NCBI GenBank assembly: GCA_945882215.1
Contig: CAMCWM010000001.1
Span: 123,042-187,041 of the forward strand
Direction of reading: 5' to 3'
Length of the DNA: 64,000 nt
Source: Akkermansia muciniphila
GTDB lineage: Bacteria; Verrucomicrobiota; Verrucomicrobiia; Verrucomicrobiales; Verrucomicrobiaceae
The stretch's first letter is position 1; each line of letters starts with the position of its first letter. The position numbers were made by a program, and so were the translations under genes. Under the pieces are notes generated by a model, which ran no database searches, had not been told where the DNA came from, and was given only the letters and a program-made list of their open reading frames with translations. Below are positions 38,945 through 44,122 of the stretch, one piece after another.

Positions 38945-40342
38945 TTACGCGATGATCTCCTTCACCACGCCGCCCTTCACATCGGTGAGGCGGAAGTCGC
39001 GGCCGCTGTAGCGGAAGGTGAGCTTTTCGTGATCGAGGCCGAGCAGGTGCAGCATGGTCGCGTGCAGGTCATGAATGTGGACGCGGCCTTCGATGCCCTC
39101 GGCACCGTATTCGTCGCTGAGACCGTGGCGGTGGCCGGGCTTCACGCCGCCGCCGGCCATCCAGATGGTGAAGGCGCGGTTGTTGTGATCGCGTCCGTCG
39201 CTTTGACCGAAGGGCGTGCGACCAAACTCACAGGCGAAGATGACGAGCGTGTCGTCGAGCAGGCCGCGTTGTTGCAGGTCGGTGAGCAGTCCGGCGATGG
39301 GTTTGTCAGTGGCGGCACAACTGGTGGGGAGCAGGTTCTTGATGTCGAAATGATGATCCCATCCGCCCGTGCCGATCTCGATGTAGCGCACGCCGGCTTC
39401 GGCGAACTTGCGGGCAAAGAGACACTGGCGGCCAAAGTTGTCGGTCGCTGTGTCGCCGATGCCGTAGAGCTTCAGCGTGTCAGCGGACTCGCGGGTGAGA
39501 TCGAGCAGCGAGGGCACAGCGGCCTGCATGCGAAAGGCCATTTCATACGAGTGGATGACGCCTTCGAGGTCGGGATTCACTTCGTCGAGCGCGAGCCGGC
39601 GTTGATTCGTTCGCCGCAGCAACTCAAGCTGTGCGCGCTGCTGAGCAGGTGTGAGATGCGTGGGCACGAGGTCCGGCACGGGCAGCGAGCCGGGCTTATC
39701 TTTGGAGCCACCGGCACTGACCATCGTGGCCTGATACGCAGCGGGCAGGAAGGCGCTGCCGTGGTTGTTGCCGCCGAACTGTCGCAGCGAGTTCATGGCG
39801 ATGTAGCCCGGCAGATCCTGTGTTTCGGAGCCGAGTCCGTAGAGCGTCCAGGCACCGACCGATGGCCGCGCCTGTGACGCAATGCCGGTGTGGAAAAACG
39901 GCACGGCAGTCTCGTGCGCCTGCTGATCCGTATGCATCGCACTGAGGACGCAGAGCTTGTCCACATGACGCGCCACGTTGGGATACAGCTCGCTCACCCA
40001 GTGTCCGCTCTGACCGTATTGACCGAACTGCCACATGCTGCCCATCAACTTTGAGGTGCCTTTGGTGCCAAAGGGTTTGCCAGCATCAGCGGTGAGCTTG
40101 GGCTTGTAATCAAAGGTGTCCACATGCGACACACCGCCCTGCATGAACATCATGATCACGCGCTTGGCTTTCGCAGGGAACAAGGCTGGGCGTGGCGAAG
40201 TGGGATTGTTCAGTGCCGCGCCTGCCTGTGTGCTCAATCCCGCGAACGCTGCGTAGCCGAAGCCATTGAGCGTGGAGCGCAGCATGTCGCGCCGAGAGAT
40301 GGCATTGCGGATTTCGGATTGTGGATTGCGGATTGGGTTCAT
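38945..40342 (-). CDS. DUF1501 domain protein (Tat-like N-terminus), N-terminus encoded by heptamer repeat
   Basis: MNPIRNPQSEIRNAISRRDMLRSTLNGFGYAAF; KRVIMMFMQGGVSHVDTFDYKP; VIFACEFGRTPFGQ; GRDHNNRAFTIWMAGGGVKPG. Confidence 0.9.
   Translation of the reverse strand: MNPIRNPQSEIRNAISRRDMLRSTLNGFGYAAFAGLSTQAGAALNNPTSPRPALFPAKAKRVIMMFMQGGVSHVDTFDYKPKLTADAGKPFGTKGTSKLMGSMWQFGQYGQSGHWVSELYPNVARHVDKLCVLSAMHTDQQAHETAVPFFHTGIASQARPSVGAWTLYGLGSETQDLPGYIAMNSLRQFGGNNHGSAFLPAAYQATMVSAGGSKDKPGSLPVPDLVPTHLTPAQQRAQLELLRRTNQRRLALDEVNPDLEGVIHSYEMAFRMQAAVPSLLDLTRESADTLKLYGIGDTATDNFGRQCLFARKFAEAGVRYIEIGTGGWDHHFDIKNLLPTSCAATDKPIAGLLTDLQQRGLLDDTLVIFACEFGRTPFGQSDGRDHNNRAFTIWMAGGGVKPGHRHGLSDEYGAEGIEGRVHIHDLHATMLHLLGLDHEKLTFRYSGRDFRLTDVKGGVVKEIIA
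40305..40338. repeat. Heptamer array (left arm): ATTGCGG ATTTCGG ATTGTGG ATTGCGG ATTGGG
   Basis: Five near-consecutive 7-mers of consensus ATTKYGG on the plus strand (reading from 40304/40305). Confidence 0.85.
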
Positions 40343-40707
40343 CGCTTGGGGCCTTTGGAGTTGGAGCGCGCGGTCTTGATGGATGCGACTGTCATGGCAG
40401 TGATCTCGTTTGCTTCCTGGATCAATGATTCGACTTGCTTGCGCTTCAAGAGACCAGCGTCGGCGATCATCTCGATCCAGCCTTGAGATTCATCCGCCTC
40501 TTCTTCAACGATGCCCAGTTTCGCGATGAACTCGGCAGTGCTGCGACCACGGCAGGCGGCACGATAATTTGAAGCCACCGAGGTTGCGCTGCGGAGCAAC
40601 TGCTTTCCCATCACGTCAGCACTGCGTTTGTTCGGGAGTGCGTCCACCATCTTGATGACGCGAAGCGCGAATACCTTGGCTCGTTCCTTGAAGTCGTTTT
40701 GGTTCAT
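40339..40707 (-). CDS. Four-helix-bundle protein (23S rRNA intervening-sequence/TIGR02436, avd-like fold)
   Basis: MNQNDFKERAKVFALRVIKMVDALPNKRSADVMGKQLLRSATSVASNYRAACRGRSTAEFIAKLGIVEEEADESQGWIEMIADAGLL; ATGA overlap with DUF1501 start. Confidence 0.9.
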   Translation of the reverse strand: MNQNDFKERAKVFALRVIKMVDALPNKRSADVMGKQLLRSATSVASNYRAACRGRSTAEFIAKLGIVEEEADESQGWIEMIADAGLLKRKQVESLIQEANEITAMTVASIKTARSNSKGPKR

Positions 40708-40723
40708 GAGCGTAGTGGTGTTC

Positions 40724-40762
40724 AAATCCGCAATCCGCAATCCGCAATCCCAGATCCGCAAT
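40724..40762. repeat. Heptamer array (right arm, inverted): AATCCGC x3, AATCCCA, GATCCGC, AATTC
   Basis: Reverse complement of the left-arm heptamer; begins directly after the PSD1 stop codon on the minus strand. Confidence 0.85.
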
Positions 40763-43237
40763 TCAATAGAGATAACGAAACTCCGCCGAGGCAAAGAGTG
40801 TCTGGCAGAATGCCGCCCAGGCACTCAGCTCCGGGTTCTTGCTGTCACTCACCGGAAAGTCGCGGATGAAGGCGGTGGCGTCGTTGCGTTCCTCGTCGGT
40901 GGGTGATCGGGCAAGGATGAGCTGGTAGGCGGTGTCGATGCGAGACAGATCGTCTTTGGTCATCTGCATCAAGCGTCGGGCCGTGCGCTGCGAGTAATCG
41001 ACGACGAGTGCGCTGTTCATCATGAAGAGCGCCTGTGTGGGCACGGTGGTGATGCTGCGGCGGCCTGTCACCATCTCGGGTTCGGGGAAATCGAAGACGG
41101 TCAAATCCGCAGGCACGGTCTCGTGCATGATGGGACGATACACGGTGCGATAGCGCTCGGTGGGCGCGAGGAGGTCGGGAATGTTGGTAGAGACGATGCG
41201 AGGATCGAGAGTGCGCAGATGAATCTGTGATTTCAGCTTCGGCGGTGTGAGATAGAGGTGACCGCTGATGGCGAGGAAAGAGTCGCGGATCGCATTGGCA
41301 TCGAGACGGCGGCGATTCGCATGCCAGTTCAGACGATTGGCGGGATCGATCTCATACGCGACGGCGTTGTGCGTGGTGCTGAGTTGGTAAACGCGGCTGC
41401 TGGTGATGTCGCGGATGAGCTTCTTCACCGACCAGCCTTGCGCGATGAATCGTTGCGCGAGGTAGTCGAGCAACGCTGCGTTCGACGGAGGCTGGCCAGT
41501 TTTGCCGAAGTCATCGGATGACTCCACGATGCCAGCGCCGAAGAGATGCTGCCAGATGCGGTTCACCATGACGCGTGCTGTGAGGGGATTGTCCTTGCTG
41601 GTGATCCACGTAGCGAGTTCCACGCGACCGCTTTGCTTCGGGTTCACCTTCGGCGTGCTGGCGGTGGTCAGCACTTCGGGGAAGCCGCGCGGCACGACCG
41701 CTCCGAGCTGCGATTCCTCGCCGCGAATGCGAATCGCACAGTCGGCGGGCTCGGGCACGTCGCGCATGGCGGACATGGCGTAGGGCAACTGAGCGTTGAG
41801 CTTGTCATTGAATTTCTCCACGATGTCCTTCAGCCGATCCTGTTCGTTCTTGAGCACCATCACCTCGGGCCGCGTTTTGTAGAACGCTTCCAGCTCGGTC
41901 TTGCCAGCTTTTTGCATCCCGGCTTCCTGCACGGCGGCACGTTGTGCGCGGTAGATTTTGCCGCCCAAGCCCATGCGGGCCGAGGCAGCCTTGAGCTGTT
42001 CGGCGAGGTCTTCGTCGGTGAACGTGATGGGCGCACCCGCGAGCGGCTGCACGCCCTGCGTCCACCTGGCAAAATGTCGGCGCCATGCTCCGGCGAGCGG
42101 CTCGGAACTGCGTAGGATGCCCGCGAGCGCGTAGTAGTCGCGTGTCGGGATCGGGTCGAATTTATGGTCGTGGCATTTTGCACACGCCAGCGTCAGGCCG
42201 AGGAGGGAGCGGCCCATGCTGTCGATCTGTTCATCGACGACGGTCATGATGTAGCGCTGATCATCTTCATCGAGCGTGTTCTTCGTGCCGATGCTGAGGA
42301 AGCCGGTGGCGATGAGCTGTTCGTTGCGTTGCGCATTGTTCGTCGCAGGCATCAGATCACCGGCGAGCTGTTCGCGCAGGAACTGGTCATACGGTTTGTC
42401 GGCGTTGAACGCCGCGATGACGTAGTCCCGATAACGGAAGTTCACCGGCAGCAGCATGTTTTGCCCGCCACCACTCGACTCGCTGTAGCCCGCAATGTCC
42501 AACCAATGACGGCCCCAACGCTCGCCGAACTGGGGGCTCGCGATGAGCTTCTCGATTTCGGATTGGGGATTTCGGATTTCGGATTGGCTCGATGACGGCG
42601 ACTCGCGCTCTTCCAACTCAGGTGGCAGGCCGGTGAGATCGTAGGAGATGCGACGGCGCAGCTCATGTGGCTGCGCGTCTGTCACGGGCTTGATGCCTTT
42701 TTCTTCGAGGGCTGCGAGAATGAAGCGGTCGATGTCCGTGCGCGGCCAAGTCACGTCCTTGACCGTGGGAACGGGCGGATTTGAGATCGGCTGAAAGGAC
42801 CAGTGCTTGCGACCTTCCTCGATGTTGATCGTCGTCGCCGCGCCCGGCTTGCCTTCGCGAGGATCGGCCGCGCCCATCGCGATCCATTGGGCGAAATCCG
42901 CCACCACTTCCGCAGGCAGTTGTTTCTTCGGCGGCATCTGCAAGTCCTCGTCCGCATAGCCGATGGCCTTGAGCAGCAGACTCTTCTCCGCATCCCCCGG
43001 CACCACCGCCGCCGCCGTGTCGCCGCCCTGGCGTGTGCTCTCGCGCGTGTCGAGCAGCAGCCCGCCTTTGTTTTTCCCCGCCTTCACGGAGTGGCAGGAG
43101 TAGCATTTCTCCGCCAGCACCGGGCGTATCTTGTTCTCAAAGAACTCGACGGCCTTCGCGTCGTCGGCTGCCGACGCTGCGACACACCGACTGGCGACCA
43201 GCAGGCAGAGGAGGCTTGGGACAACGGCGCGTTTCAT
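40763..43237 (-). CDS. PSCyt1/DUF1549/DUF1553 (PSD1) domain protein
   Basis: Signal peptide; VEFFENKIRPVLAEKCYSCHSVKAGKNKGGLLLDTRESTRQGGD; MPPKKQLPAEVVADFAQWIAMGA; RRISYDLTGLPPE; NRIWQHLFGAGIV; QALFMMNSALVVDYSQRTARRL. Confidence 0.93.
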   Translation of the reverse strand: MKRAVVPSLLCLLVASRCVAASAADDAKAVEFFENKIRPVLAEKCYSCHSVKAGKNKGGLLLDTRESTRQGGDTAAAVVPGDAEKSLLLKAIGYADEDLQMPPKKQLPAEVVADFAQWIAMGAADPREGKPGAATTINIEEGRKHWSFQPISNPPVPTVKDVTWPRTDIDRFILAALEEKGIKPVTDAQPHELRRRISYDLTGLPPELEERESPSSSQSEIRNPQSEIEKLIASPQFGERWGRHWLDIAGYSESSGGGQNMLLPVNFRYRDYVIAAFNADKPYDQFLREQLAGDLMPATNNAQRNEQLIATGFLSIGTKNTLDEDDQRYIMTVVDEQIDSMGRSLLGLTLACAKCHDHKFDPIPTRDYYALAGILRSSEPLAGAWRRHFARWTQGVQPLAGAPITFTDEDLAEQLKAASARMGLGGKIYRAQRAAVQEAGMQKAGKTELEAFYKTRPEVMVLKNEQDRLKDIVEKFNDKLNAQLPYAMSAMRDVPEPADCAIRIRGEESQLGAVVPRGFPEVLTTASTPKVNPKQSGRVELATWITSKDNPLTARVMVNRIWQHLFGAGIVESSDDFGKTGQPPSNAALLDYLAQRFIAQGWSVKKLIRDITSSRVYQLSTTHNAVAYEIDPANRLNWHANRRRLDANAIRDSFLAISGHLYLTPPKLKSQIHLRTLDPRIVSTNIPDLLAPTERYRTVYRPIMHETVPADLTVFDFPEPEMVTGRRSITTVPTQALFMMNSALVVDYSQRTARRLMQMTKDDLSRIDTAYQLILARSPTDEERNDATAFIRDFPVSDSKNPELSAWAAFCQTLFASAEFRYLY
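42555..42587. repeat. Heptamer array inside the PSD1 coding sequence: ATTTCGG ATTGGGG ATTTCGG ATTTCGG ATTGG
   Basis: Same heptamer family as the 40.3/40.7 kb arms; translates in frame as SQSEIRNPQSEI. Confidence 0.85.
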
Positions 43238-43282
43238 TGGTAAGTCTGGCGAGACATAACTGCGCACAAGCGTTGGTCTTGC

Positions 43283-44122
43283 ATGTCGCCCCTCAAGACC
43301 CTCCGTCTCAGCCTGTTGCTCTTGATCATTCCGCTCGGGCACGCTGAAGAACCAGGACGGACCGGAGACCTGTTTCGCGAGTCATTCGATGACGCCTTGA
43401 TCGATCAACGCGGCTGGTATGATGGGAAAGAGGTGCGCATCGTCCCCAATGGCAAAAGCGGCTCATGCATCGAATACGAATGGACCGACGCGAGCGACAC
43501 CGTGACTGGCTCCTCGGCGAAACGACATCTGTTCGAGCCCACGGACGAGATTTTTATCCGCTACTACCTGCGGCTCTCCAAAGGCTGGGGCTGGAGCGGG
43601 CGGAGCTACCATCCGCATCTCACGCACTTCATGACCACGGAGAACTCGAAGTGGCACGGCCCGGCGGCGAGTCATCTCACGCTCTACATCGAACCGGTGA
43701 ACGGCAAACTGCGTCTCGCCGCGCAGGACATTCAAAACAAGGACATGCCACACGGCCTGACGCAGGGACCGCTGCGTGGCGGCTACAACGGCCAGATGTT
43801 CGACAGCGCGGACGAACTCTTCACTGACGACGCGTGGCATTGCATCGAAGCGCAGTTCAAACTCAACACCCTCGACCTCAAGAATGACAAACCCAACGCC
43901 GACGGCATCGTGCGCGGCTGGTTCGACGGCAAACTCGTCATTGCGCACACGGACGTGATCCTGCGCTCCACCGATTTTCCCAACATGAAGTTCAACCAGT
44001 TCCTCATGGCGCCGTACTTTGGCCCCGGCCTGCTGCCACACGCGCAGAAGCTGTGGATCGACGAAATGGTCGTCGGGAAGAAGAGGATGGGGCCGCTGGA
44101 ACCGGAAGCGAAGGCTCCGTAG
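43283..44122 (+). CDS. Secreted polysaccharide lyase/concanavalin-like protein, unknown specificity
   Basis: Signal peptide MSPLKTLRLSLLLLIIPLGHA; ESFDDALIDQRGWYDG...EIFIRYYLRLSKGWGWSGRSYHPHLTHFMTTEN; WFDGKLVIAHTDVILRSTDFPNMKFNQFLMAPYFGPG. Confidence 0.7.
   Translation: MSPLKTLRLSLLLLIIPLGHAEEPGRTGDLFRESFDDALIDQRGWYDGKEVRIVPNGKSGSCIEYEWTDASDTVTGSSAKRHLFEPTDEIFIRYYLRLSKGWGWSGRSYHPHLTHFMTTENSKWHGPAASHLTLYIEPVNGKLRLAAQDIQNKDMPHGLTQGPLRGGYNGQMFDSADELFTDDAWHCIEAQFKLNTLDLKNDKPNADGIVRGWFDGKLVIAHTDVILRSTDFPNMKFNQFLMAPYFGPGLLPHAQKLWIDEMVVGKKRMGPLEPEAKAP

What the first reader, a model, noticed from the sequence alone, without database searches (positions are those of the whole stretch)
42555..42587. 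In-frame invasion of a PSD1 coding sequence by the same heptamer array
A 33-nt array (ATTTCGG ATTGGGG ATTTCGG ATTTCGG ATTGG) of the same family lies 1.8 kb away inside the PSD1 ORF and translates as SQSEIRNPQSEI. Three heptamers make 21 nt, or 7 codons, so the array has a 7-residue period and stays open in this frame. The same peptide (RNPQSEIRN) appears at the DUF1501 N-terminus, so the repeat generates protein sequence at two places.
Basis: partly seen in the sequence, partly recalled or inferred. Interest (0 to 1): 0.66.

Follow-up and report, generated by a model that had tools for sequence, protein, structure and literature searches.

The report
Repeat arrays paired with a mobile gene
The short repeat stuck inside this protein gene is a stray copy of the matching end-repeats of a tiny gene cassette (a four-helix-bundle 'IVP' gene between two mirror-image 7-letter repeat arrays) that has inserted next door; the same pairing of gene and repeats recurs across many bacterial phyla and could explain both an orphan protein family and many unexplained bacterial heptamer repeats.

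Summary
The array is real and is an insertion. Orthologous PSD1 genes at 94-96% identity (two other genomes) carry it; those at 74% lack it, with a linker exactly 11 codons (33 nt) shorter. The two other arrays, 1.8-2.3 kb away, bracket a 122-aa four-helix-bundle gene (40339-40707, minus strand; PF05635/TIGR02436 'IVP', the family encoded in 23S rRNA intervening sequences) wedged between PSD1 and DUF1501. Elsewhere those two genes are adjacent. Flanking inverted arrays are general: 55% of 78 IVP loci from more than 15 phyla have them, against 0.4% of shifted controls. They point inward, and the IVP lies in sense orientation between co-directed operon genes (86 sense, 3 antisense). The repeat core follows the protein: 80% of the 30 window-type IVPs have a 7-nt GATT array, against 7% of other IVPs. 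Planktothrix agardhii independently repeats the arrangement: a window-type IVP with GATT arrays inside a DISARM operon, and an in-frame array in a drmA linker of that operon that differs by 84 nt between strains. Best reading: a non-autonomous copy of a REPtron-like element. IVP-guided mobility is inferred, not shown.

The parts
42555..42587 (.). Solo heptamer array, in frame inside the PSD1/PSCyt2 linker; on the PSD1 strand it reads as the downstream-arm type (AATCCGA...) and encodes SQSEIRNPQSEI
   Evidence: insertion relative to 74%-identical orthologues:
40725..40762 (-). Upstream arm of the IVP element (GATTGCG type, G-rich on the IVP sense strand), starting right after the PSD1 stop codon
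40339..40707 (-). IVP gene, 122-aa four-helix-bundle protein (PF05635 69 bits, TIGR02436 93 bits); AlphaFold2 pLDDT 95; closest solved folds 2RLD and 2GSC, then DGR Avd (8UB7, 4DWL); its stop codon overlaps the DUF1501 start (ATGA)
40304..40335 (-). Downstream arm of the IVP element, inverted relative to the upstream arm; also encodes the first residues of DUF1501 (PIRNPQSEIRN)
40304..40762 (-). Whole IVP element (459 bp); as RNA the two arms pair into a stem of about 30 bp enclosing the ORF (MFE -168.7 kcal/mol, z = -2.7)
   Evidence: empty junctions in G043, G007 and G004:
40763..43342 (-). PSD1 (PSCyt1-PSCyt2-PSD1) host gene of the solo array
38945..40342 (-). DUF1501 gene, N-terminally extended by the downstream arm; array-free shorter N-termini in G015 and G008 (MNPLFPSRRDF..., MNSPPILSRRDM...)

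Best explanation
The array at 42555 is a gene-less copy of the terminal repeats of an 'IVP element'. The parent type is an IVP (Avd-like four-helix-bundle) gene between two inward-facing arrays of degenerate ~7-nt repeats, inserted in sense orientation between genes of an operon; one such element sits 1.8 kb away at 40304-40762. Shown here: the insertion, the inverted arrays, the sense-only placement, and that the repeat core follows the IVP protein clade (GATT for this clade). Inferred: the IVP oligomer recognises its cognate array in RNA or single-stranded DNA and helps copies of the element or of bare arrays spread, as TnpA(REP) is proposed to do for REPs, relying on an enzyme supplied in trans because the IVP has no recognisable catalytic domain. 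Also inferred: the paired arms form an RNA stem that is processed, as in 23S rRNA intervening sequences. The copy in PSD1 survives because it fell in a variable linker, is a whole number of codons long, and its repeat has no stop codon in any frame.
For: Insertion of the solo array. Empty junction for the element: G043, G007 and G004 have PSD1 and DUF1501 adjacent; G015 and G008 have an array-free DUF1501 N-terminus. Inverted arrays: Smith-Waterman score >=32 in 55% of 78 IVP loci, against 2.3% of mismatched pairs and 0.4% of shifted controls. Polarity: upstream arm has G>C in 59 loci, C>G in 3. Sense placement between co-directed neighbours: 86 to 3 in three data sets. Cognate core: GATT at 7-nt spacing on either side in 80% of 30 window-clade IVPs, 7% of 109 other IVPs, 1.7% of shifted controls. 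Array similarity rises with protein similarity (Mantel r 0.38, no permutation above 0.07). 47 of 50 genomes with a window-clade IVP carry 4-unit GATT arrays, against 93 of 338 others (p = 3e-20). Independent repeat in Planktothrix agardhii: window-clade IVP with GATT arrays between drmD and pglX, plus an in-frame array in drmA of that operon with an 84-nt difference between strains and absent in Oscillatoria. IVP-less inward pairs. Coxiella's rRNA IVS has tandem heptamers in its stem (PMC4990558).
Against: No transposition was observed, no target-site duplication defined, and the IVP has no catalytic domain. 27.5% of genomes without a close window-clade IVP still carry GATT arrays, and G035 has 107 matches with no IVP at all, so arrays can persist or spread without the gene. 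G015 and G008 carry the PSD1 array but no window-clade IVP was found in them. Some loci in the clade tests share genomic context and are not independent. The insertion of this IVP element rests on one metagenome-type assembly.
Confidence: 0.72

Rival explanations
1. Ordinary minisatellite: the array arose in place by replication slippage in a tolerant linker and has nothing to do with the IVP gene.
For: Unit number does vary by multiples of 7 (L012, L013, L014; Planktothrix drmA differs by 84 nt). Some genomes have arrays and no IVP.
Against: The same unit occurs in the genome only here and on both sides of the IVP, within 2.3 kb of 6.2 Mb. The core is shared with the arrays of homologous IVPs in other families and phyla. 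Array identity follows the IVP. Slippage explains later length change, not origin.
Confidence: 0.08
2. The arrays are RNA signals rather than mobility ends: the IVP binds its own inverted arrays in the operon mRNA to control processing or translation of the operon, and solo arrays are further binding sites or decayed sites.
For: Sense-only placement between operon genes; strong paired stem; RNase III cleavage at the heptamer-bearing stem of the Coxiella IVS (PMC4990558); ATGA overlap with DUF1501.
Against: Solo arrays inside coding linkers (42555; L175, L181; drmA) are poor regulatory sites; presence is patchy, with empty junctions in close relatives; gene contexts are unrelated.
Confidence: 0.15
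3. Arrays came first and served as homology for capture: the PSD1 array was already in the ancestor, and the IVP cassette entered later by recombination near it.
For: The PSD1 array is in G000, G015 and G008, whereas the IVP element is only in G000. The three arrays lie unusually close together.
Against: The IVP element inserted 1.8 kb away, not in the array. The PSD1-DUF1501 junction of G015 and G008 holds other cassettes that could have replaced an older IVP element.
Confidence: 0.15
4. The encoded heptapeptide SEIRNPQ is a selected protein feature of PSD1 and DUF1501.
For: Frame and most residues are kept between three species at 94-96% identity. In-frame solo arrays seen here mostly encode the hydrophilic PQSAIRN type, not IADCGLR.
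Against: Absent in all more distant homologues; the linker is variable in length and sequence; unit sequence differs between species; the same peptide type appears in unrelated proteins.
Confidence: 0.04

Closest known systems
23S rRNA intervening sequences with an S23/IVP ORF (e.g. Coxiella burnetii IVS, PMC4990558)
   Same: Same protein family; ORF in sense orientation; terminal inverted repeats form a stem of about 28-30 bp; tandem heptamers (GACAGAT) in the stem next to the start codon.
   Different: Here the host is an mRNA operon, not rRNA; both arms are recognisable heptamer arrays; solo and IVP-less copies occur elsewhere; the repeat core is matched to the IVP clade.
REPtrons: TnpA(REP)/RAYT genes flanked by inverted REPs (PMC8266576)
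   Same: One small gene bracketed by inverted cognate repeats, with gene-less repeats and inverted pairs dispersed in the genome, in some genomes concentrated near the gene.
   Different: The IVP is a four-helix bundle, not an HUH nuclease; the repeats are ~7-nt tandem arrays, not GTAG-tagged palindromes; the placement is inside operons in sense orientation.
Avd of diversity-generating retroelements
   Same: Same fold (8UB7, TM 0.75; 4DWL, TM 0.72); PF05635 described as Avd-like and homologous to BPP-1 Avd (PMC10053308).
   Different: No reverse transcriptase or template/variable repeat was noticed next to the IVP in the window; no retrohoming shown.
Heptameric tandem repeats of cyanobacteria, Xanthomonas and Beggiatoaceae (PMC4692102, PMC4679880)
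   Same: Intergenic tandem heptamers, often close to start codons.
   Different: Those reports do not mention an IVP gene or inverted bracketing of one.

Membership tests
IVP / four-helix bundle protein (PF05635, TIGR02436) | Profile match above curated cut-off | tested here: met
   69.2 bits (cut-off 33.8) and 93.3 bits (cut-off 24)
IVP / four-helix bundle protein (PF05635, TIGR02436) | Four-helix bundle fold like 2RLD / 2GSC | tested here: met
   pLDDT 95, TM 0.80-0.85 to 2RLD; pentamer state not tested
23S rRNA intervening sequence | Located inside an rRNA gene | tested here: not met
   Lies between PSD1 and DUF1501
23S rRNA intervening sequence | Terminal inverted repeats forming a stem around the ORF | tested here: met
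23S rRNA intervening sequence | Excised from the transcript by RNase III | not testable with these tools
   needs transcript mapping
REPtron (TnpA(REP)/RAYT) | HUH/Y1 transposase gene | tested here: not met
   gene is an IVP four-helix bundle
REPtron (TnpA(REP)/RAYT) | Gene flanked by inverted cognate repeats, with gene-less copies elsewhere | tested here: met
   in the own genome only one gene-less copy
REPtron (TnpA(REP)/RAYT) | GTAG-tagged palindromic REP | tested here: not met
   repeats are tandem GATTNNN heptamers
Diversity-generating retroelement | Reverse transcriptase with template and variable repeats nearby | not tested
   none noticed among the annotated neighbours, but no dedicated search was made
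Transposable element in general | Empty site in a relative | tested here: met
   G043, G007, G004: PSD1 and DUF1501 adjacent
Transposable element in general | Target-site duplication or observed movement | not testable with these tools
   closest empty sites are 74% identical, too far to define the exact ends

The most novel reading that the evidence does not exclude
IVP genes and their clade-matched inverted heptamer arrays form a widespread, previously unrecognised class of operon-invading mobile elements, with 23S rRNA intervening sequences as a special case and many bacterial heptamer repeats as their gene-less copies. The Avd-like IVP would be the recognition factor of an RNA-based or ssDNA-based copying mechanism.
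Probability: 0.5. Interest if true: 0.88.

Novelty: new variant of a known kind. Interest (0 to 1): 0.74.

Why it matters
IVP/S23 proteins have had no known role since they were found in rRNA intervening sequences, and heptamer arrays in bacteria have had no known source. A specific pairing of protein clade and repeat core, present in many phyla and in cultivable cyanobacteria, joins the two puzzles and makes both testable: does an IVP bind, process or move its own array? It also shows a route by which non-coding repeats become protein sequence, because stop-free heptamers can enter coding linkers in frame.

Tried and rejected
Empty-site search for a solo array in the Akkermansia-like G154: the region is a composite dispersed repeat and gave no clean empty site. 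G015 and G008 as empty sites for the IVP element: their PSD1-DUF1501 junctions hold candidate defence genes, so only their DUF1501 N-termini are usable. IVP remnant in the L183 spacer (MNKNDL... against MNQNDF...): suggestive, but not above chance at nucleotide level outside the array. Literature searches found no description of IVP genes with cognate flanking arrays, but only open-licence papers are held. Selection on the encoded peptide was considered and judged unlikely.

Full report
THE OBSERVATION. It lies inside PSD1 (40763-43342, minus; PF07635/PF07583/PF07587), encodes SQSEIRNPQSEI, and the related peptide PIRNPQSEIRN starts DUF1501. It is not a genome-wide microsatellite: (ATTKNGG)x3 occurs in the 6.2-Mb genome only at three arrays within 2.3 kb, and the reversed control pattern never. 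A heptamer read in any of the three frames of a strand gives the same 7-codon cycle, and this unit has no stop in either strand's cycle, so openness 'in this frame' is automatic; only length modulo 3 matters.

IT IS AN INSERTION. Orthologues G015 (96%) and G008 (94%) have the array (SQSEIPNPQSEI); G043 and G007 (74%) and G004 (58%) do not. The linker GLPP...GERW (counted from LTGLPP) is 41 residues with the array and 30 without, a difference of 11 codons or 33 nt, though the linker is variable in more distant paralogues. G009 has a different tandem peptide (DPTDPTDPTD) at the same place. The PSD1 array is therefore older than the G000/G015/G008 split.

The other two arrays (40304-40335 and 40725-40762) are inverted to each other and bracket a gene at 40339-40707 (minus) for a 122-aa IVP four-helix-bundle protein. 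The model (pLDDT 95) matches the S23-family structures 2RLD and 2GSC and then DGR Avd. The upstream arm begins directly after the PSD1 stop codon; the IVP stop overlaps the DUF1501 start (ATGA); the downstream arm is the DUF1501 N-terminus. As RNA the arms pair into a stem of about 30 bp around the ORF (z = -2.7). In G043, G007 and G004 PSD1 runs directly into DUF1501, and in G015 and G008 the DUF1501 N-terminus has no array, so the element is an insertion.

IT IS GENERAL. The other clear IVP genes of the same genome (L006, L008, L009) also have flanking short tandem arrays, with other units: a 10-mer GTTGACGGTG type, a 7-mer GAGTTAG type and a 6-mer CATACT type. For 78 IVP loci from more than 15 phyla, the upstream flank matches the reverse complement of the downstream flank at score >=32 in 55%, against 2.3% for mismatched pairs and 0.4% for shifted positions. 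The upstream arm is G-rich on the sense strand in 59 loci and C-rich in 3. Where both neighbours point the same way, the IVP is in sense in 52, 18 and 16 cases and antisense in 1, 1 and 1, for the cross-phylum, relative and window-clade sets. ORF-based gene calls were used there; annotated plasmid records agree.

REPEAT AND PROTEIN BELONG TOGETHER. The 29 closest homologues of the window IVP in a 388-genome phylum sample (about 50-59% identity) were chosen by protein alone. With the window's own, 80% of the 30 have GATT at 7-nt spacing on at least one side and 60% on both, against 7% and 2% of 109 other IVPs and 1.7% and 0% of shifted controls. Over 102 loci, array similarity rises with protein similarity (Mantel r 0.38 for non-near-identical pairs, largest of 999 permutations 0.07). 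Some loci share genomic context, so counts are not fully independent. Genomes with a window-clade IVP (E <= 1e-23) have 4-unit GATT arrays in 47 of 50 cases, against 93 of 338 others. The IVP's own arms contribute to this, but the median is 14 matches, so copies beyond the IVP exist.

GENE-LESS COPIES. G009 has about ten loci with ATTGCGG-type arrays without an IVP beside them, including in-frame ones in PSD1-family linkers (L175 IRNPQSAIRN, L181 PQSAIRN) and a DUF1501 N-terminus (L183). Inward-facing IVP-less pairs with spacers of 0-88 nt occur in other genomes. G154 has 150 pattern matches and an IVP with an internal stop; G035 has 107 and no IVP, consistent with arrays outliving the gene.

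AN INDEPENDENT REPEAT OF THE SAME PICTURE. In Planktothrix agardhii PCC 7805 a 58%-identical IVP with GATT arrays sits between drmD and pglX of a DISARM operon; drmA of that operon carries an in-frame array encoding IVNPKSSIVNPQSL... in a linker. Strain No.66 is 84 nt (28 codons) shorter there, and Oscillatoria PCC 7112 has none.

MECHANISM. Shown: insertion, inverted inward arrays, sense placement, clade-matched core. Inferred: the IVP oligomer binds its array and promotes spread of the element and of bare arrays with a partner enzyme; the paired arms act in RNA as in rRNA intervening sequences, where RNase III cuts the stem and the Coxiella IVS has three GACAGAT heptamers beside the S23p start (PMC4990558). 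The Avd likeness (PMC10053308) makes a reverse-transcription partner a reasonable guess, no more. Works like: a REPtron (PMC8266576). Is a member of: the IVP family (yes); 23S rRNA IVS (no, not in rRNA); REPtron (no, no HUH protein and no REP palindrome).

LIMITS. Many genomes here are draft or metagenome assemblies. The array in PSD1 is confirmed in three assemblies; this particular IVP insertion is seen in one. The SW >=32 cut was set after looking at the score distribution, but the separation from controls is large. The literature check covers open-licence papers only, so 'not described before' is provisional.

Noticed in passing
L006, L008, L009 (own genome IVP loci): Each other clear IVP gene of this genome has its own flanking inverted tandem arrays with a different unit and period (10, 7 and 6 nt).
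   Followed up: yes
L187:1527-5578 (G015) and L188:12979-16466 (G008): The PSD1-DUF1501 junction that holds the IVP element in the window holds candidate defence genes in the two closest relatives (PDC-M23A/B with HamB-like helicase; PDC-S02 and PDC-S73), so it looks like an insertion hotspot.
   Followed up: partly
L018 (G009 PSD1): The same PSD1 linker holds a different tandem peptide, DQTDPTDPSDPTDPTD, so this linker may be invaded repeatedly.
   Followed up: no
L183:2522-2657 (G009): An IVP-less inverted array pair sits at a paralogous PSD1-DUF1501 junction; its spacer starts MNKNDL, resembling the IVP start, but this is not above chance at the nucleotide level.
   Followed up: partly
G154, G035 (loci L239-L268, L276-L279): Small Akkermansia-type genomes with over 100 GATTTAC-type array matches each, many at contig ends; one has an IVP with an internal stop, the other no IVP.
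   Followed up: partly
L365:14694-14801 and L371 (Planktothrix agardhii drmA): In-frame heptamer array in the DISARM helicase DrmA differs by 84 nt between strains.
   Followed up: yes
L373:2398-2591 (Oscillatoria PCC 7112): The drmD-side junction before the DISARM methyltransferase carries a different heptamer array (ACTCCCG) without an IVP.
   Followed up: no
L175, L178, L181, L183: Solo arrays inside coding sequence seen here encode the hydrophilic PQSAIRN cycle rather than IADCGLR; this may reflect tolerance or a strand bias of insertion.
   Followed up: no
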